The notes beneath the pieces are model-generated. The model did no database searches and had not been told where the DNA came from. It worked only from the letters and a program-made list of their open reading frames with translations. A program made the translations under genes and the position numbers. DNA of 64,000 bases from Clostridiales bacterium (lineage in GTDB: Bacteria; Bacillota; Clostridia; Christensenellales; Aristaeellaceae). Location: NCBI GenBank assembly GCA_017569285.1, contig CP069419.1:124001-188000 (forward strand), in the 5' to 3' direction. This document shows, one piece after another, positions 5,643 through 35,026 of the stretch (position 1 is the first letter of the stretch; each line of letters begins with the position of its first letter).

Positions 5643-6632
5643 ATGAAAATTCGTGTTTTGGACCGGATTCTGGTAGCGGTTGCCGGAATTGTCCTGCTGG
5701 CACTCTGCGCCGCCCTGGTCGCACAGGTTTTCTTTCAGGCAGATGTTGTCCGCTTTATCAGTGACCAGGTCAATCTGAATTCCCGGCTTTTCCGGATTAT
5801 TGCCGCATGTATCGCCGGAGTTCTCCTGCTGATCGGAATATACTGTTTCCTGATGCTTTTCCGCCACCGCAGCAAGCGGGATAAGTTTATCCTGCAGAAA
5901 ATGGAAAGCGGCGATCTCGCCATTTCCCTGAAAGCGCTTGAAACCATGGTCTCCAAATGCATGGAGCAGCATCCTGAGATTCAGACCGAAGGAATCCGCC
6001 TTGAAAACCAGCGGGACGGACTGATCATAAAAATCCGCGGCAAGGTTGCCGGTGGGATCAGTATCCCCCTGACCATCGATACACTCCAGAAGCAGATCAA
6101 GCAATATGTAACTGCCTGCAGCGGAGTGGAAGTAAAAGGAATCCGGGTACAGATTGAGTCCTCGGGTGAAGAAGCACAGGATGCACCTTTTGCGATTGAC
6201 CCGCCTGCTGCCATTCCGCTGCTTCGCAGCTCCGAAAAGAAAGAAGAAATTCCGGAAGAATTACCCGCTTCAGATAATCCGAAAGAATCTTCCGTCCCCG
6301 AAACAGCCATTCCGGAAGAACCGGCTGCTGTTCCTCCATCGAAATCTGCTGCAGAAGCGGCCATGGAGGAAGCAGAAAGCCGGATGAAGGAATACGAAAT
6401 GGAAAACGAGGATGACCGGCCGATCCACCAGCGCATTTTCAGCACACCGGAAGAACCCTGTATCATGCCCCTTCCTCCGGAAGACCTGATCGAGCCATCC
6501 GGCAGTGCTGCAGATGAAACCGATCATGCATCGGATATACTCCCGGAAAAGAAGACGGAAGATGCTCAGATGATTTCACCGGAAGAAGCCATTCCTTCCG
6601 GGATCGAAGATCAACCGGATACGAAAGAATAA
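5643..6632 (+). CDS. amaP: Alkaline shock response membrane anchor protein AmaP
   Basis: AmaP anchors Asp23 at the membrane. The 329-residue protein opens with two membrane segments (about 8-32 and 47-72). A soluble Asp23-like domain follows (about 85-175), containing the ISIPLTIDTLQKQIKQYV stretch. From about residue 190 it continues as a very acidic Glu/Pro-rich tail, longer than in most relatives. A strong ribosome binding site (GGAGG) precedes the ATG. Its place between asp23 and DUF2273 is the standard arrangement. Confidence 0.88.
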   Translation: MKIRVLDRILVAVAGIVLLALCAALVAQVFFQADVVRFISDQVNLNSRLFRIIAACIAGVLLLIGIYCFLMLFRHRSKRDKFILQKMESGDLAISLKALETMVSKCMEQHPEIQTEGIRLENQRDGLIIKIRGKVAGGISIPLTIDTLQKQIKQYVTACSGVEVKGIRVQIESSGEEAQDAPFAIDPPAAIPLLRSSEKKEEIPEELPASDNPKESSVPETAIPEEPAAVPPSKSAAEAAMEEAESRMKEYEMENEDDRPIHQRIFSTPEEPCIMPLPPEDLIEPSGSAADETDHASDILPEKKTEDAQMISPEEAIPSGIEDQPDTKE

Positions 6633-26414: not shown

Positions 26415-26466
26415 ACCATCCGTTGTTTCTGTGTTGTTTTTCCGGCCACCGTATTGTGAATGTCCG

Positions 26467-26500
26467 CCTCAGAGGGTAAAATTCTCTCTGGGGCTTTTTT
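26467..26500 (+). terminator. Terminator-like hairpin between the secreted-protein gene and icd
   Basis: CCTCAGAGGG pairs with CTCTCTGGGG (two wobble pairs, 7-base loop) and is followed by C and six T residues. It ends 26 bases before the icd start codon. No convincing promoter lies between it and icd. It may therefore end the upstream operon, or attenuate a transcript that continues into icd. Confidence 0.65.
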
Positions 26501-26525
26501 CAGCCCTAATGAACGGAGGTATACC

Positions 26526-27734
26526 ATGAATAAAATCCAGATGAAAACACCCCTGGTTGAGATGGACGGCGATGAGATGACCCGGATCCTCTGGGCGAAA
26601 ATCAAAGATCTTCTCATTACCCCGTTTGTAGATCTTCAGACGGAATATTATGATCTGGGCCTGAAGCATCGGGATGAAACCAATGACCAGGTTACAATTG
26701 ACAGTGCAAACGCAGCCAAAAAATACGGTGTGGCTGTTAAGTGTGCCACCATCACCCCCAACGCCCAGCGGGTGGAAGAGTATCACCTGAAGGAAATGTG
26801 GAAGAGTCCGAACGGAACCATCCGGGCCATCCTGGACGGAACCGTTTTCCGCTCTCCGATCCTGGTGGACGGTGTTCATCCTACCGTCCGTACCTGGAAG
26901 AAACCCATCGTTATTGCCAGGCATGCCTATGGCGACGTTTACCGAAATTCCGAAATCCGTGTTCCATCTGCCGGAAAGGCAGAACTGGTTTTCACCGGTG
27001 AGGACGGGGAAGAAATCCGACAGACTATATTTGATTTCAAAGGCCCCGGTGTAATCCAGGGAATCCACAACCTGGACAGTTCCATCTGTTCTTTCGCCCA
27101 CAGCTGTTTCCGTTATGCCCTGAGCCAGAAACTTGATCTGTGGTTCTCCACAAAAGATACCATCAGCAAAACATATGACCACCGGTTCAAGGATATCTTC
27201 CAGGAAATCTATGACCAGGAGTATAAAAAGGCATTTGAAGATAACGGAATCACCTATTTCTATACACTGATCGATGATGCCGTCGCCCGTGTGGTTCGTT
27301 CTGAAGGCGGATTTATCTGGGCCTGCAAGAATTATGACGGCGATGTAATGAGTGATATGATCGCGACGGCCTTCGGCTCCCTTGCGATGATGACTTCCGT
27401 GCTGGTCAGTCCGAACGGACAGTTCGAGTATGAAGCCGCCCACGGAACTGTTACCCGCCATTATTACCGGTACTTGAAAGGGGAGGAGACCAGCACCAAT
27501 CCGGTGGCAACGATCTTCGCATGGAGCGGCGCACTGAGAAAACGCGGTGAACTTGATCATCTTCCTGATCTGCAGGATTTTGCCGACAGGCTGGAAAAAG
27601 CCACACTGGATACCATTAATTCCGGAATCATGACCAAAGACCTGGCCGGCCTGTATGACGGCAATGTCCAGGGTGTCAACAGCCAGCAGTTCCTGGAAGC
27701 AATCTCCGCCAGAATCACCGCCATGTATGCCTGA
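26526..27734 (+). CDS. icd: NADP-dependent isocitrate dehydrogenase (eukaryote-like homodimer type)
   Basis: This enzyme oxidatively decarboxylates isocitrate to 2-oxoglutarate with NADP. The 402-residue protein belongs to the subfamily shared with eukaryotes rather than the E. coli type. It has [14 protein letters not shown] near the start, [19 protein letters not shown] for isocitrate binding, [24 protein letters not shown] at the metal site, and [18 protein letters not shown]. The ATG at 26526 follows GGAGG. An exact inverted repeat CCTGAAC...GTTCAGG (27730-27750) covers the stop codon and may be a weak terminator lacking a T-run. Confidence 0.96.
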
Positions 27735-27752
27735 ACTCATCCGGTTCAGGTA

Positions 27753-27781
27753 TTGACGTCCGGTTTTGTTTTCGCTATAAT
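27753..27781 (+). promoter_or_regulatory. Promoter of the structured non-coding RNA
   Basis: TTGACG (27753-27758), a 17-base spacer and a perfect TATAAT (27776-27781) predict a start near 27788. No open reading frame follows before the terminator at 27980-28010. Confidence 0.85.
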
Positions 27782-27787
27782 TTAATC

Positions 27788-28010
27788 AGCTTCCTGGGGA
27801 TCGCGACAGCTTTTCGGTTTTCCCCACATTTCATAAAATGGAGCCCGGGTCCATATGGTGATATGCCATGCCCCCGTTCTGAACGTCAGGGGACGGCAGA
27901 TTCATCAGGCAGGGCACCAGCCTGCTTTACATAGCGGGTGAAAAAACGAAAGCATCGGCTCCCTGGGGCAACAGAAAAACCTGTACAAATCTGTACAGGC
28001 TTTTTCTTTT
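27788..28010 (+). ncRNA. Unidentified structured RNA of about 220 nt (6S RNA is one candidate)
   Basis: The region has its own strong promoter and a perfect terminator but no plausible protein. The ends pair into a long rod. GGGA (27797-27800) pairs with TCCC (27960-27963), CGA with TCG, and GCTTT(T)CG(G)TTTT..CCC (27809-27825) with GGG..AAAACGAAAGC (27936-27953). Inside are local hairpins: ATTT/AAAT (27829-27839), CATAT/ATATG (27852-27865), and a nested TGCC-CCCC-CGTT/AACG-GGGG-GGCA element (27864-27898). GCAGG/CCTGC (27910-27924) is a further one. A rod with an open interior resembles 6S RNA in outline, but I cannot find its conserved bubble sequences. It lacks the SRP GGAAGGAAGCA, tmRNA and RNase P signatures. 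Identity is open; existence of an RNA gene is well supported. Confidence 0.78.
27980..28010. terminator. Bidirectional terminator: structured RNA and ZorAB-like operon
   Basis: CCTGTACA and TGTACAGG form a perfect 8-bp stem with a 4-base loop, followed by TTTTTCTTTT on the plus strand. The minus strand also gives a T-run (GGTTTTTCTG), so the hairpin can end the convergent three-gene operon as well. Confidence 0.9.
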
Positions 28011-28026
28011 CTGAAAAATGGAGATT

Positions 28027-28542
28027 CTACCGGGTTGACTGGCCGATCGTCATCCTTTGCGAGAAGGGCATACCCCACAGGTACCAGGAAACAATCGCTT
28101 CCCTGACATGATGCACCCCGGACCCCGTCAGTACAGTTATCCTGATCAGTTCATCCCGCCCCGGTTCAATTACTGTTTCTTTCCCCGGTTCCAGCATGGT
28201 TTCAACAGTACCATTCAACTGAATGATATCCCCCGAAAGGGGAATAATGCGGATTTCCGCCGCTTTAGCCGGAATTCTGGTCCGGTTGGAGATCCGGACC
28301 GTCCAGGTGTACAGGAGGCTGTCTGCCGGGGAAAAGGCTGTTTCCTGTGCCAGTTTCAGTCCGGCAAATGTATCCTCTTCCAGCTGCGTCTTCAGCGATT
28401 CCATCAGTTCCGGCCGGGACATCGGATCAGTCGCGACGCAATCAATATAAGTCACCGTCAGGGAAGATGATGCATAATAATATACCACGCCAGCCAGTGC
28501 GGCAATGCACAGGATAATCAGAATAATACCCGCTGCTTTCAT
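28027..28542 (-). CDS. Membrane-anchored accessory protein of the ZorAB-like operon (unknown function)
   Basis: This 171-residue protein has one N-terminal membrane segment (about 4-24) followed by an outward-facing domain. VRISNRTRIPAKAAEIRIIPLSG and a repeated Glu-Pro-Gly pattern (MLEPGKETVIEPG) suggest a small beta-sandwich, Ig- or LEA14-like fold. I recognise no named family. It starts 2 bases after the OmpA-like gene, so the three genes form one operon. By context it may be a periplasmic or wall-side partner of the channel. Confidence 0.7.
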   Translation of the reverse strand: MKAAGIILIILCIAALAGVVYYYASSSLTVTYIDCVATDPMSRPELMESLKTQLEEDTFAGLKLAQETAFSPADSLLYTWTVRISNRTRIPAKAAEIRIIPLSGDIIQLNGTVETMLEPGKETVIEPGRDELIRITVLTGSGVHHVREAIVSWYLWGMPFSQRMTIGQSTR

Positions 28543-28544
28543 AA

Positions 28545-29537
28545 TCAGTTACCTGTTCCTTGTTCCTGCTGTGAAAGGATCCGGTTCATTTCGTCAATCA
28601 TTTCAGCATCTTTCAGGCTGAATTTGAATTCCACCCGGCGGGAAGCGTCCGCATCTTCCTTTCCGTCGACATAGATCAGGTCGGAATAGCTTCGTCCCTT
28701 TGCGGTGAGAATTTGCTGCAGGCGTGTTTTTTGTTCCCTGGACAGGGACTGCATATTCAGACAGTACAGCGCCACCTGAAGCGCCCGGTCCTGGCTGAGT
28801 TTCAGATTTGTTTCATAGCTGCCCTGAGAATCCGTATGTCCTTCAATGATGATCTCACCCAGATAATCCGAATATTCATCCCGAAGCAGGACGTTCAGGT
28901 ATACCGGAACAAAACGGTTCAGAAGATCCTGACCTTCCTGCTTGATTGTATACTTTCCGGATTCAAAGAATACGGAACTGTCGAGAACAATATCTCCGTT
29001 ATTCGGATCGACGGTTGCCTTCAGATTCGCATGGGAAAGGGCAGAGGAAAGCTCCCGGATCATCGCAGTCCTGATCCCCACAAGATCATCGATCCGGCGG
29101 GCCTGGCTGGAAAGCAGAAGCTGCTGTTCTTCAAGTCTTGCAGTCGCTTTGTCCAGATCCGCCTGTTTCAGGATCAGTGTGTTCTGAAGTTTCTCCAGTT
29201 CCTCTTCCCTGGAAATCAGAATCAGATTGGTCGCATTCAGTTCCTCTTCTTTGGAGGTCAGTGTTGTCTGCAGCTCATCCAGATCCGCCTGAATAATAAT
29301 CAGCGCTTTTTCCTTTTCGTTCAGCGCATCCTGCGCGATATTCAGCTGGATTGCCTGATTGTCCAGTTCTCTGGTCTTTGATTCCAGCATCGTAAAATAC
29401 TGGTACAGGCTGTATGTCAGTATCAGTACAAAGATCAGCAGCAATGCCGCCATCATATCCGAATAGCTGATCCAGCTTGCTCCGCCTCCCGGACTTCCGT
29501 GTGCGGCCCGCCGGTTATGTATTCGTTGACGCGCCAT
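28545..29537 (-). CDS. MotB/ZorB-like protein with OmpA peptidoglycan-binding domain
   Basis: This is the second subunit of a putative ion-driven stator. Residues 22-46 (WISYSDMMAALLLIFVLI) match the MotB/ZorB membrane segment, with the essential proton-carrying Asp at 27. A long coiled coil follows (about 48-160, heptad-like LNATNLILISREEELEKL). A C-terminal OmpA domain (about 180-315) contains IIIEGHTDSQGSYETNLKLS and QDRALQVALYCL, which would grip peptidoglycan. The 330 residues are longer than typical ZorB because of the coiled coil. It is 2 bases from both operon neighbours. Confidence 0.85.
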   Translation of the reverse strand: MARQRIHNRRAAHGSPGGGASWISYSDMMAALLLIFVLILTYSLYQYFTMLESKTRELDNQAIQLNIAQDALNEKEKALIIIQADLDELQTTLTSKEEELNATNLILISREEELEKLQNTLILKQADLDKATARLEEQQLLLSSQARRIDDLVGIRTAMIRELSSALSHANLKATVDPNNGDIVLDSSVFFESGKYTIKQEGQDLLNRFVPVYLNVLLRDEYSDYLGEIIIEGHTDSQGSYETNLKLSQDRALQVALYCLNMQSLSREQKTRLQQILTAKGRSYSDLIYVDGKEDADASRRVEFKFSLKDAEMIDEMNRILSQQEQGTGN

Positions 29538-29539
29538 GA

Positions 29540-30826
29540 TCAGTCCTCCCCGGAAAGCGTTGAAACTGTATCAGAAATTTTGCCTACATTGCGGCTGATT
29601 CCTTCCATCAAATCCCGGATGGCATCCAGATCCTTCTGATTCAGTTCCGTCCGGTCGGACAGGGAACGGATTTTACCGCCGAATTCAGCCATAAGTCCGG
29701 CCAGTTCCTTATTTTCCTTCTCCATCCGGTCCAGAACCGAGCTGACTCTTTCTTCATATGTTTCATCACGGTGCCGGACTTCATTGATCCCTTTCATATA
29801 GTGATCAAATTTGTCCAGGATATGATTGGTCATCTCCTGCAGGGCAAGGGCATTATTGACAATTCCCTGCGCAGCAGCCACATTCTCACCGGCTGCCCGT
29901 GATGCGCTGATCTGGTTTTTGGTGAGCGAATCCATGGACAGGGACAAAGCGGAGAACTGATTTCCCAGACTCCGGTCCATTTCATCCAGGAACCGCGCCA
30001 CAATTCGATTGACTCCGTCGATCTGATTCCGGGTAGCACCGACAATGAAGTGATCCATCGATTCGGATACCGGATTCATTGCACGGGTGATGGAACGGCC
30101 GACGTTTTCGGCAAGCCGGTCCACCAGCGTATCATTGATTCCCTGCAGCATGAAATTCCGGTCCTGATTCTGAATAATCATCTGTACATCATTATCCAGA
30201 GGCCGGGACATCGCCAGCTGGGTGAAAGAAGAAACAAAATCATCAATCGCGCGGTAGCTTGAGCCCTGGGAAATCCGGTTCATCATATTAAAAACAATAC
30301 TGCAGCTGATACCTGCCACAGACGTCCCGAACGCGAACCGCATTCCGCCGAGCAGATCCGGAATCCCCTTGATCAATTCTGACGCATCTGCGAAATTCAG
30401 GGATGAAAGACCCCTGGACAATCCCATAAACGTACCCAGGATACCCAGGGATGTCAACAGGTTCGGGATCAGCTCCGCCAGGGTCGCATTTCCGGGCCCG
30501 TGGGTTACCGTATCATCGTTGATATAGTCCTCCACATTTGTCGGAAGTCCGCGCCGGTCCAGCTGTTCCGCATTCTGCAGAAAACGCAGCCATATATCCT
30601 GGAGCCTTTTTCCGACAAACCTGGCTTCCTGCCAGACCGGCTTATCAGTCGTTTTTCCGGCATTGGCCTGGAGCCGGCTGATTGCCCTGCGAAGAGCCCC
30701 GGTGGTTTTCCACAGCGGAATGAGGCACTTGAACAAACCGATCAGCGTGACAACCGCAATGGCAGAATATACCAGATAATCGGCAAGATCCGGTAGAATT
30801 GCCGTAACGTTCGACAGATCAGGCAT
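29540..30826 (-). CDS. MotA/TolQ/ExbB-family channel protein, ZorA-like with helical tail
   Basis: The 428-residue protein has three membrane segments (about 12-34, 118-141, 160-183). The core NLLTSLGILGTFMGLSRGLS and GMRFAFGTSVAGISCSIVFN is typical of the MotA/ExbB proton-channel fold. From residue 200 it is a long helical cytoplasmic tail of about 230 residues, as in ZorA of Zorya anti-phage systems, though shorter. No ZorC, ZorD or ZorE effector is nearby. The alternative is a housekeeping stator-like envelope complex. The ATG at 30826 has AGGAGG before it; an upstream in-frame ATG at 30847 does not. Confidence 0.83.
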   Translation of the reverse strand: MPDLSNVTAILPDLADYLVYSAIAVVTLIGLFKCLIPLWKTTGALRRAISRLQANAGKTTDKPVWQEARFVGKRLQDIWLRFLQNAEQLDRRGLPTNVEDYINDDTVTHGPGNATLAELIPNLLTSLGILGTFMGLSRGLSSLNFADASELIKGIPDLLGGMRFAFGTSVAGISCSIVFNMMNRISQGSSYRAIDDFVSSFTQLAMSRPLDNDVQMIIQNQDRNFMLQGINDTLVDRLAENVGRSITRAMNPVSESMDHFIVGATRNQIDGVNRIVARFLDEMDRSLGNQFSALSLSMDSLTKNQISASRAAGENVAAAQGIVNNALALQEMTNHILDKFDHYMKGINEVRHRDETYEERVSSVLDRMEKENKELAGLMAEFGGKIRSLSDRTELNQKDLDAIRDLMEGISRNVGKISDTVSTLSGED

Positions 30827-30856
30827 AATAACGCCTCCTATAAACAAACATACGTC

Positions 30857-30918: not shown

Positions 30919-31635
30919 TCATTTCAAAGAAGAGAGAACCTGCCCGACCTTGTCATGAATCACCAGGTCGCATTCGCTGTCCATCGGTGTCGCATCCCGG
31001 TTGATCAGAATCAGATGTTTTCCGCGAAAATACCGGACCAGTCCTGCCGCAGGATATACTGTGAGGCTTGTACCAGCAACAATCATCAGGTCGGCTTTGG
31101 ATATCGCATGAACCGCCCCCGTCACAACATCATTGTCCAGGCCTTCCTCATAAAGAACCACGTCCGGCTTAATCCTTCCTCCGCAGCCGCATTTCGGAAC
31201 CAGTTCCGGATAATCCCGGATATATTCAGGCGGAAAGAACTTTCCGCAGCGTTCACAGTAATTTCTGTGAATACTTCCGTGAAGCTCAAATACTTTCTGA
31301 TTGCCCGCTTTCTGATGGAGACCGTCAATATTCTGTGTTACGATTCCAGCCAGTTTCCCTGATTTTTCCCATTCCGCCAGTTTCCGGTGAGCCGCATTCG
31401 GTTCAGCGTCCAGGGGAAGCATTTTATCCCGGTAGAAACGAAAGAATTCTTCCGGTTTTCGCACAAAAAAGGTATGAGAGAGAATCTCTTCCGGCGGATA
31501 ATCGTATTTCTGGTGGTACAGCCCGTCTACACTCCGGAAATCCGGAATTCCGCTTTCAGTTGATACACCGGCGCCTCCAAAGAAAACAATTTTTGAGCTT
31601 TCATCAATCCATTGCTGCAGTAATTCATAAGTCAT
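30919..31635 (-). CDS. NAD-dependent protein deacylase (sirtuin)
   Basis: Sirtuins remove acetyl or other acyl groups from lysine while consuming NAD. The 238-residue protein has the NAD-binding GGAGVSTESGIPDFRS, the catalytic TQNIDGLHQKAG with FELHGS, and a zinc site (YCERCGKFF and PKCGCGGRIKPDVV). This is the plain single-domain SirTM/CobB form, not one of the fused Sir2 proteins of defence systems. GAGGTGG precedes the ATG. The DUF308 membrane gene is 9 bases upstream, so the two are probably co-transcribed. Confidence 0.93.
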   Translation of the reverse strand: MTYELLQQWIDESSKIVFFGGAGVSTESGIPDFRSVDGLYHQKYDYPPEEILSHTFFVRKPEEFFRFYRDKMLPLDAEPNAAHRKLAEWEKSGKLAGIVTQNIDGLHQKAGNQKVFELHGSIHRNYCERCGKFFPPEYIRDYPELVPKCGCGGRIKPDVVLYEEGLDNDVVTGAVHAISKADLMIVAGTSLTVYPAAGLVRYFRGKHLILINRDATPMDSECDLVIHDKVGQVLSSLK

Positions 31636-33802: not shown

Positions 33803-33903
33803 GGCAGAGTAGCGTTTTCCGCGTCAAGTGTTCATGAACGGGGAGTTGTCATGAAACGAAACAGCTGACAGCTGTGCGGTGGAAAATGCGCATCCCGCTG
33901 CTT
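33803..33903 (+). promoter_or_regulatory. THF (tetrahydrofolate) riboswitch aptamer
   Basis: The RNA matches the THF riboswitch consensus block by block: GCAGAGTAG at the 5' side of P1, CGCGTCAAGTGTT, ACGGGGAGTTGTC, an ACGAA joining segment, GCGGTGG, and GCATCCCGCTGC closing P1. It stands directly upstream of a folate-type ECF transporter gene, the usual target. Binding of reduced folates is expected to turn expression off. Confidence 0.92.
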
Positions 33904-33970: not shown

Positions 33971-35026
33971 ATGCAGAGAAAAAATGTCAACTACAAAACT
34001 TTCAAAACCCCATTCTGCCGGGAATACTGGAAGCTGGCTTTTGCGGAATTCAAAAACACAAAGATGATTGTGTTTGCCGCTCTGATCCTTGCCCTCCGGA
34101 TTGCCGTCAAACCGCTGAGTATCCCGGTCGCCGGTGACCTGAAGGAAGGAATCGGCTTTATCGTGAACGCTTTCGGTTCCATGATCTACGGACCCATTGT
34201 GGCCCTCCTCAGCGGCGCCTTATCCGATACGCTCGGATATCTGCTGTACCCGAGCGGCGTCTATTTTCCTGCATACATGATTACCGAAATGGCCGGCAGC
34301 TTTGTCTTTGCACTCTTTTTATACAGAGCAGAAATCACGGTTCCCCGGCTGCTGCTCTGCCGGTTTTCCATCTGCCTATTCGTAAATGTGATTTTGTCAT
34401 ATCCGATCCATGTATGGTACTGGAATGTCGTACTGGGAAAAACTTATTCCATGGCAATGGTCGCAGTAATAAAAAACGTTGCGTTGTTTCCCATTGAAAC
34501 CGTAGTGCTTGCCGTTGTTTTCCGTGCGCTGATTCCTCCTTTCAACCGTCTCGGGTATGTCTATTCAGGAACGGAACGCCTCGAATTTACCAAAAAGCAT
34601 GTAATCCTGCTGGCCGCCCTGTTTGTTTTCGGCATCGGAACCGTTGCGGGTTATTCCATCTACAGCTACAACACAACTTCTCTCAGTATCTCCTACAGTG
34701 CGGATCAGCGTCTTGCAAGAAACCGTGCAATTGAAGCCCATATGCTGAAAAATCATCCGGAACTGGATTCAGAAGAAACCGTATGCATTATTGAGTCCGC
34801 CTACCCGAAAGCGTTTTCTCCGGAGGTGACCTACCAGGTTGCCGTATATAAAGCGGATGTCACCGGATCCGATGAGCCGGAAAAACTGATGACCGAACTG
34901 GAGGGACTGAGCAAATCTAAAGCAGCTGCCCGGGATGAGATGTCCCTTCTGTTCAGGGAAGAAATCATCCTTTCAGATGAATTTGCAAAAGAACCGGAGA
35001 AGGGTGCTGTAAATCATGAACCGTGA
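33971..35026 (+). CDS. folT: Folate-type ECF transporter S component
   Basis: S components give ECF transporters their vitamin specificity. The 351-residue protein has about six membrane segments in residues 30-195. It has the typical ECF motif MIVFAALILALRIAVKPLSIP and KEGIGFIVNAFGSMIYGPIVALLSG, followed by GALSDTLGYLLYPSG. A soluble domain of about 130 residues follows, not usual in FolT, with a further hydrophobic segment near 205-228. The THF riboswitch in its leader is the main reason to call folate as substrate. No EcfA or EcfT genes are nearby, so it must share a module encoded elsewhere. Confidence 0.88.
   Translation: MQRKNVNYKTFKTPFCREYWKLAFAEFKNTKMIVFAALILALRIAVKPLSIPVAGDLKEGIGFIVNAFGSMIYGPIVALLSGALSDTLGYLLYPSGVYFPAYMITEMAGSFVFALFLYRAEITVPRLLLCRFSICLFVNVILSYPIHVWYWNVVLGKTYSMAMVAVIKNVALFPIETVVLAVVFRALIPPFNRLGYVYSGTERLEFTKKHVILLAALFVFGIGTVAGYSIYSYNTTSLSISYSADQRLARNRAIEAHMLKNHPELDSEETVCIIESAYPKAFSPEVTYQVAVYKADVTGSDEPEKLMTELEGLSKSKAAARDEMSLLFREEIILSDEFAKEPEKGAVNHEP

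What the first reader, a model, noticed from the sequence alone, without database searches (positions are those of the whole stretch)
27753..28010. A standalone, highly structured RNA gene with no recognised family
Seen: near-consensus promoter, no credible ORF, perfect bidirectional terminator, and a transcript of about 220 nt. Its ends form a long interrupted rod enclosing at least four local hairpins. Known: stand-alone RNAs of this size with strong promoters are usually housekeeping (6S, SRP, tmRNA) or one of the orphan structured classes. I find no SRP, tmRNA or RNase P signature. 6S fits in outline only. Inference: either a divergent 6S RNA or an undescribed RNA class located between icd and a ZorAB-like operon.
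Basis: partly seen in the sequence, partly recalled or inferred. Interest (0 to 1): 0.8.

Follow-up and report, generated by a model that had tools for sequence, protein, structure and literature searches.

The report
Overlooked 6S RNA gene beside icd
This is the bacterium's copy of 6S RNA, a well-known RNA that imitates an open promoter and holds back RNA polymerase; its sequence has drifted just enough to fall under the standard database threshold, so it is an ordinary gene with an annotation gap rather than a new class.

Summary
The one significant Rfam match in the 2 kb around it is 6S (RF00013), full length, 42.8 bits, E 8.4e-7, under the listing threshold of 46.4. Of 52 family genomes with both a DNA homologue and an over-threshold 6S match, 51 have them at one place and strand. 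A covariance model from 30 such 6S genes outside the window's genus scores the window at 148 bits, its only match in 64 kb, finds one copy in the genome and finds E. coli ssrS where it is annotated. Base pairs covary. The E. coli product-RNA start (position recalled) aligns with C27827, predicting 5'-GUGGGGAAAACC. A strong promoter recurs in 56 of 67 homologues. Expected action: bind housekeeping RNA polymerase as an open-promoter mimic and be released by product-RNA synthesis (inferred from the family, not shown). The notable point is that the strict Rfam search calls 6S in 0 of 7 genomes of the genus, though all 7 carry it.

The parts
27753..27781 (+). promoter of the 6S gene: TTGACG (27753-27758), 17-nt spacer, TATAAT (27776-27781)
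   Evidence: TTGAC and TATA(A/C)T conserved in 7 of 7 genus members; 56 of 67 homologues have a 9-12 of 12 promoter in the 45 nt upstream, against 4 of 200 control stretches
27788..27973 (+). 6S RNA, body of the transcript (covariance-model boundaries)
   Evidence: RF00013 42.8 bits, E 8.4e-7; family model R1 148 bits, E 3.6e-40
27792..27805 (+). closing stem, 5' arm (pairs with 27956-27968)
   Evidence: alignment; helix 1 of A2, 97.9% of cells paired, 1 of 13 pairs changed on both sides
27811..27821 (+). two short stems between closing stem and central bulge, 5' side; the U-tract next to the bulge pairs with 27940-27944
   Evidence: helix 2 has changes on both sides at 4 of 4 pairs; helix 3 has 100% of cells paired but is nearly invariant; the window has one G/A mismatch in helix 3
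27822..27839 (+). 5' side of the central bulge (open-promoter mimic)
   Evidence: unpaired in the A2 consensus and in R1
27814..27827 (+). predicted template for a 14-nt product RNA starting opposite C27827; product read on the complement, 5'-GUGGGGAAAACCGA
   Evidence: E. coli nt 44 aligns with C27827; start motif across 68 sequences. Prediction, not observed
27840..27918 (+). apical (upstream-DNA-like) arm with internal loops
   Evidence: helices 4-7 of A2, 12 of 22 pairs with changes on both sides
27920..27939 (+). small hairpin on the 3' side of the central bulge
   Evidence: helix 8 of A2, 97.7% of cells paired, 1 of 6 pairs changed on both sides
27956..27968 (+). closing stem, 3' arm
27975..28006 (.). 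intrinsic-terminator-like hairpin, usable in both directions (also at the 3' end of the convergent gene 28027-28542)
   Evidence: last bases read

Best explanation
The region encodes the single 6S RNA (SsrS) of this clostridial genome, transcribed from 27788 or so to about 28006. By the mechanism established for this family, the RNA mimics an open promoter: the rod and its central bulge occupy the holoenzyme carrying the housekeeping sigma factor when growth stops and hold it off promoters. When nucleotides return, the polymerase uses the 5' side of the bulge as a template, starting with GTP opposite C27827, and makes a short product RNA predicted to begin GUGGGGAAAACC. That opens the adjacent stem and releases the enzyme. 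Shown here: gene anatomy, homology to 6S genes, conserved and covarying structure, conserved product-RNA start motif. Inferred from the family: expression, polymerase binding, product-RNA synthesis and release.
For: (1) cmscan of 27000-29000 against all 4227 Rfam families: 6S full length 1-187, 42.8 bits, E 8.4e-7; the next best has E 0.64. (2) Of 91 family genomes with a DNA homologue at E<=1e-5 (own genome left out), 52 have an over-cut-off RF00013 match, and in 51 of these 52 the two coincide in place and strand (tallied). (3) Model R1, made from 30 RF00013 matches outside the genus, scores the window 148 bits, E 3.6e-40, as the only match at E<=10 in 64 kb; 30 of 30 DNA-homologue loci match at 107.7-185.6 bits (2 of the 30 are genes that are in the model); it finds E. 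coli K-12 ssrS at 184-367 of the fetched stretch (annotated 184-366), E 7.6e-11. (4) Structure on a sequence-only alignment: 95.5% of cells paired against 45-51% when slid; covariation score 0.342 against 0.182 in shuffles, 0 of 500 as high. (5) E. coli nt 44, the start known to me by recall, aligns with C27827. An A follows the start in 68 of 68, GG at 4/5 or 5/6 in 66 of 68, AA at 9/10 in 64 of 68, the hallmarks reported in PMC8414754 (passages); GTP initiation as in B. subtilis 6S-1 (PMC12005410, passages). (6) Promoter conserved: 56 of 67 against 4 of 200 controls. (7) One copy in the genome.
Against: The window sequence is 3.6 bits under Rfam's 6S gathering score and is not listed in the gathering scan or the whole-genome RF00013 searches. 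Of the 91 genomes with a DNA homologue, 39 have no over-cut-off 6S match. In a permissive Rfam scan of 20 homologue loci, 11 show 6S at E<=0.01 and 1 is over the cut-off; of the 7 genus loci only L002 and L003 are listed; L001, which holds the window's own gene, is lost, so the filters drop true members. The RF00013 control also rings in the archaeon Haloferax volcanii at E<=10, so weak family matches prove little alone. Holding the predicted product-RNA site unpaired opened stems but formed no new helix with 9 or 14 nt and only a 3-pair hairpin with 20 nt, whereas the E. coli control gained a 9-pair hairpin in all three. The 68 sequences behind the start motif were chosen because they match R1 and were aligned to it. 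No transcript data were available.
Confidence: 0.97

Rival explanations
1. An undescribed structured RNA class that merely resembles a rod with a bulge.
For: Below Rfam's gathering score; no RF00013 match in the strict genome search for 7 of 7 genus members.
Against: DNA homologue and over-cut-off 6S share place and strand in 51 of 52 genomes that have both; the model from such genes finds E. coli ssrS; the A after the product-RNA start is shared by 68 of 68.
Confidence: 0.02
2. A 6S paralogue with a changed role (as for 6S-2 in B. subtilis), the main 6S lying elsewhere.
For: Some Firmicutes have two 6S RNAs (PMC8414754, PMC12005410, passages); genome completeness is 97.05%.
Against: R1 finds one strong copy in the 3.27 Mb genome; the next match is 10.5 bits, E 7.2, with 150 of 934 first-look candidates scored. 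R1 still detects 6S genes as distant as E. coli.
Confidence: 0.02
3. A 3' untranslated element of icd rather than an independent gene.
For: Its first base is 54 bases past the last base of icd on the same strand.
Against: Own near-consensus promoter, conserved in relatives. In 71 of 80 named icd loci R1 finds no match at E<=1e-8 in the flanks held, though some flanks are short and R1 is specific to one family; two of the nine matches lie upstream of icd (L093, L074).
Confidence: 0.01

Closest known systems
6S / SsrS RNA, Rfam RF00013
   Same: Full-length match, rod with central bulge, apical arm, size, product-RNA start motif
   Different: 3.6 bits under the gathering score; the stem beside the bulge is U/A-rich (helix 3 of A2), where E. 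coli has CCCCUGAGCC
Bacillus subtilis 6S-1 (BsrA) and lactic-acid-bacteria 6S RNA
   Same: GTP-initiated product RNA with GG then an A-tract; small hairpin opposite the 5' bulge
   Different: B. subtilis 6S-1 product is 5'-GUUCGGUCAAAACU (PMC12005410, passage); predicted here GUGGGGAAAACCGA. One copy here, two in B. subtilis
E. coli K-12 ssrS
   Same: Found by the clostridial-family model at its annotated place, E 7.6e-11
   Different: Product RNA starts with A in E. coli (alignment), predicted G here; different neighbours (zapA/fau there; icd here)

Membership tests
6S RNA (RF00013) | Significant full-length match to the family's covariance model | tested here: met
   1-187 of 187, 42.8 bits, E 8.4e-7 for 2,001 bases and 4227 families
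6S RNA (RF00013) | Rfam gathering score of 46.4 bits (an annotation threshold, not a biological feature) | tested here: not met
   42.8 bits; not listed at the gathering threshold. Over-cut-off 6S at the homologous place in 51 of the 52 genomes that have both
6S RNA (RF00013) | Homology to an experimentally established 6S RNA | tested here: met
   one model, R1, finds E. coli ssrS, E 7.6e-11, and the window, 148 bits
6S RNA (RF00013) | Rod: closing stem, large central bulge, apical arm, supported by covariation | tested here: met
   50 pairs, 18 with changes on both sides, 95.5% of cells paired on the family alignment; the window fits the same model
6S RNA (RF00013) | Product-RNA template site in the 5' side of the bulge | tested here: met
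   by sequence only: C27827 aligns with E. coli nt 44; motif in 64 to 68 of 68
6S RNA (RF00013) | Expressed ~160-220 nt RNA, abundant in stationary phase | not testable with these tools
6S RNA (RF00013) | Binds housekeeping-sigma RNA polymerase and templates product RNAs | not testable with these tools
   needs bench work
6S RNA (RF00013) | Refolding into a new helix on product-RNA binding | tested here: inconclusive
   E. coli control gained a 9-pair hairpin; the window only opened stems at 9 and 14 nt and gained 3 pairs at 20 nt
tmRNA, SRP RNA, RNase P RNA | Match to the family model | tested here: not met
   none among the 8 matches at E<=10 in 27000-29000; no tmRNA in the window by ARAGORN

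The most novel reading that the evidence does not exclude
A genus-level variant of 6S RNA with a U/A-rich stem beside the bulge and a G4A4 product RNA that frees polymerase by simple stem opening, without the new release helix reported for E. coli and B. subtilis (PMC12005410, passage).
Probability: 0.1. Interest if true: 0.35.

Novelty: new member of a known kind. Interest (0 to 1): 0.15.

Why it matters
It closes an annotation gap: 0 of 7 genomes of this genus are called for 6S by the strict-filter Rfam search, though all 7 carry it. It is a reminder that a structured orphan RNA under the Rfam cut-off should be tested through its relatives before it is called a new class. The 2010 survey PMC2864571 (passage) says that homology searches often fail for diverged members of known RNA classes, and names 6S among those it expanded.

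Tried and rejected
Alignment A1 mixed strands, because loci from the genome search are given on the contig's + strand; it was discarded and redone as A2.

RF00013 searched over whole genomes misses the window's own gene, presumably through the fast first look; this was not taken as absence. L001, which holds the window's own gene, was also lost at E<=0.01.

Other Rfam leads near the gene (Thr_leader, MicC and five more) have E of 0.64 or more and were rejected. The Thr_leader and MicC matches include the terminator hairpin.

A release helix on product-RNA binding was looked for; at most 3 new pairs appeared. A second 6S copy was looked for and not found.

T-runs of five or more within 60 nt downstream: 46 of 67 homologues. 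No control was made, so this carries little weight. In the promoter tally 67 of the 68 rows of A5 were used; E. coli was left out. 11 of 67 scored 8 or less in the 45 nt looked at.

The 68 sources were chosen: the window, 57 of the loci L002-L060 (L017 and L027 left out as duplicates of L048 and L044; L001 left out as the window itself), the 9 of 80 named icd loci that match R1, and E. coli. So 68 of 68 matching is not a rate.

In the overlap tally only places with DNA E<=1e-5 (91 genomes, one best place each, G000 itself left out) and the 76 genomes over the RF00013 cut-off were compared; 52 had both, 39 of the 91 had no over-cut-off match. The one of 52 that differs, G135, has 6S-like places on two contigs and its second DNA match does lie on the 6S place. 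The 20 genomes with only sub-threshold RF00013 matches were not put into that tally.

Named organism: not settled. One search kept the best 80 of 592 relatives of the icd protein, at 71-86% identity; the two best (86%) are goat- and roe-deer-omasum Clostridia MAGs.

Paper searches that found nothing in the held library: '6S RNA' with 'isocitrate dehydrogenase' and 'synteny', 'Gut-1 RNA', '6S RNA' with 'Christensenella'.

Full report
What is there. Between icd (26460-27734, +; NADP-dependent isocitrate dehydrogenase) and a convergent gene (28027-28542, -; no family) lies a stand-alone RNA gene. It has a promoter TTGACG-17-TATAAT at 27753-27781, a body at 27788-27973 and a terminator-like hairpin at 27975-28004 followed by T's. 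No ORF wholly inside is longer than 28 aa. The 219-nt transcript folds well (z -4.0), though much of that comes from the terminator (z -2.0 without it).

Identity. Rfam at gathering thresholds lists nothing here, but the permissive scan of 27000-29000 gives one significant match: 6S RNA, full length, 42.8 bits against a cut-off of 46.4, E 8.4e-7; the next match has E 0.64. To test this without leaning on one sub-threshold score, I searched 150 genomes of the same family twice, by DNA similarity and by RF00013. 138 of 150 had a DNA match at E<=1, many of them chance; 96 of 150 had an RF00013 match at E<=10 and 76 one over cut-off. Of 91 genomes with a DNA match at E<=1e-5 (own genome left out), 52 have an over-cut-off 6S and 39 do not; in 51 of the 52 the two lie at the same place and strand. 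The strict search calls none in the 7 genomes of the window's genus, and a permissive scan of 20 homologue loci shows 6S at E<=0.01 in 11, over the cut-off in 1. So the family threshold falls through the middle of this group.

Independent model. Thirty of the RF00013 matches, none from the window's genus, were aligned by sequence alone (A2) and made into a model, R1. R1 scores the window at 148 bits, E 3.6e-40, its only match at E<=10 in 64 kb. 30 of 30 DNA-homologue loci match full length at 107.7-185.6 bits (2 of these, L017 and L027, are the same genes as L048 and L044 in the model). The whole genome shows one copy; the next match is 10.5 bits. E. coli K-12 ssrS, fetched from its record, is found at 184-367 where 184-366 is annotated, 46.0 bits, E 7.6e-11. 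Of 80 named icd loci, 9 have an R1 match at E<=2e-9, one more has E 0.27; 7 of those 9 are over the Rfam 6S cut-off on their own, and the other two, L061 and L095, have the icd proteins nearest to the window's among the nine (86% and 83%).

Structure. On A2 RNAalifold gives 50 pairs, 18 with changes on both sides. 95.5% of cells are standard pairs, against 45-51% with partners slid by 1-3 columns; the covariation score is 0.342 against 0.182 (0 of 500 shuffles as high; pairs with change on both sides 18 against 14.4, 4 of 500 as high). The helices are a closing stem, two short stems, a long apical arm and a small hairpin on the 3' side of a large bulge. This is the layout that PMC8414754 describes for 6S RNA of lactic acid bacteria, with the small hairpin also in B. 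subtilis 6S-1 (passages).

Product-RNA site. In the model-based alignment of 68 sequences E. coli nt 44 falls on window C27827; that nt 44 is the E. coli start is recalled, not from a call. Reading the complement from that column gives GUGGGGAAAACCGAAA for the window. Across the 68, which were chosen for matching R1, the nucleotide after the start is A in 68, GG stands at 4/5 or 5/6 in 66, and AA at 9/10 in 64. PMC8414754 reports the upstream A, GG and AA as hallmarks (passages), and PMC12005410 states that B. subtilis 6S-1 product RNAs start with GTP (passages). Folding with the site held unpaired formed a 9-pair hairpin in E. coli but in the window only opened stems (9, 14 nt) or added 3 pairs (20 nt), so the release step is not predicted in detail.

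Gene setting. A promoter scoring 9-12 of 12 lies in the 45 nt upstream of 56 of 67 homologues, against 4 of 200 control stretches. In five named relatives the RNA starts 72-119 nt past the end of the icd match on the same strand (L061, L095, L099, L116, L079). 71 of 80 icd loci show no R1 match at E<=1e-8, with the caution that some flanks are short and R1 is specific to one family, so the link looks recurrent rather than fixed.

Verdict. A divergent but ordinary 6S RNA. Shown: gene anatomy, homology, covarying structure, start motif. Inferred from the family: expression, polymerase binding, product RNAs, stationary-phase role. The value is an annotation gap closed; the survey PMC2864571 (passage) already notes that homology searches often miss diverged members of known classes and names 6S among those it expanded.

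Noticed in passing
L003:1716-1808 and L005:1752-1840; genomes G066, G112, G149 and others: Gut-1 RNA (RF01706), reported in 2010 only from human-gut environmental sequence (PMC2864571, passages), matches just downstream of the 6S gene in two genus relatives (sub-threshold) and gives 29, 22 and 29 matches (some overlapping; 29 is also the number of candidates scored) in three genomes of the genus. 31 of 150 family genomes match at E<=0.1 and 20 are over cut-off; none listed in the window's genome; 2 of 14 control genomes ring, none over cut-off. In L003 it is a row of hairpins spaced by TGTGAAATAT. It looks like a multicopy repeat rather than a single RNA gene.
   Followed up: partly
L116:6482-6650: Clostridiales-1 RNA (RF01699, 127.8 bits), an orphan class, begins 3 nt after the end of the 6S match (6298-6479) on the same strand. 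A link between the two classes might be worth testing.
   Followed up: no
G135:C34:17637-17825 and G135:C89:8820-8977: Two 6S-like places in one genome (62.8 and 22 bits by RF00013, both with DNA similarity to the window): a possible second 6S or a mixed assembly.
   Followed up: no
window 28545-30847, - strand: MotB/OmpA-like (28545-29537) and MotA/ZorA-like (29540-30847) gene pair; the best NCBIfam matches are Zorya ZorB1 and ZorA_2 but under their cut-offs. A Sir2 deacylase gene (30919-31635, -) lies next to them, upstream on that strand.
   Followed up: no
window 33803-33902, + strand: THF riboswitch (84.3 bits) ahead of a FolT-like ECF transporter S component (33971-35026), an expected pairing.
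   Followed up: no
window 27795-27800 and 27821-27826: TGGGGA in the closing stem is fully complementary to TCCCCA in the product-RNA template, so an alternative pairing is possible here.
   Followed up: no
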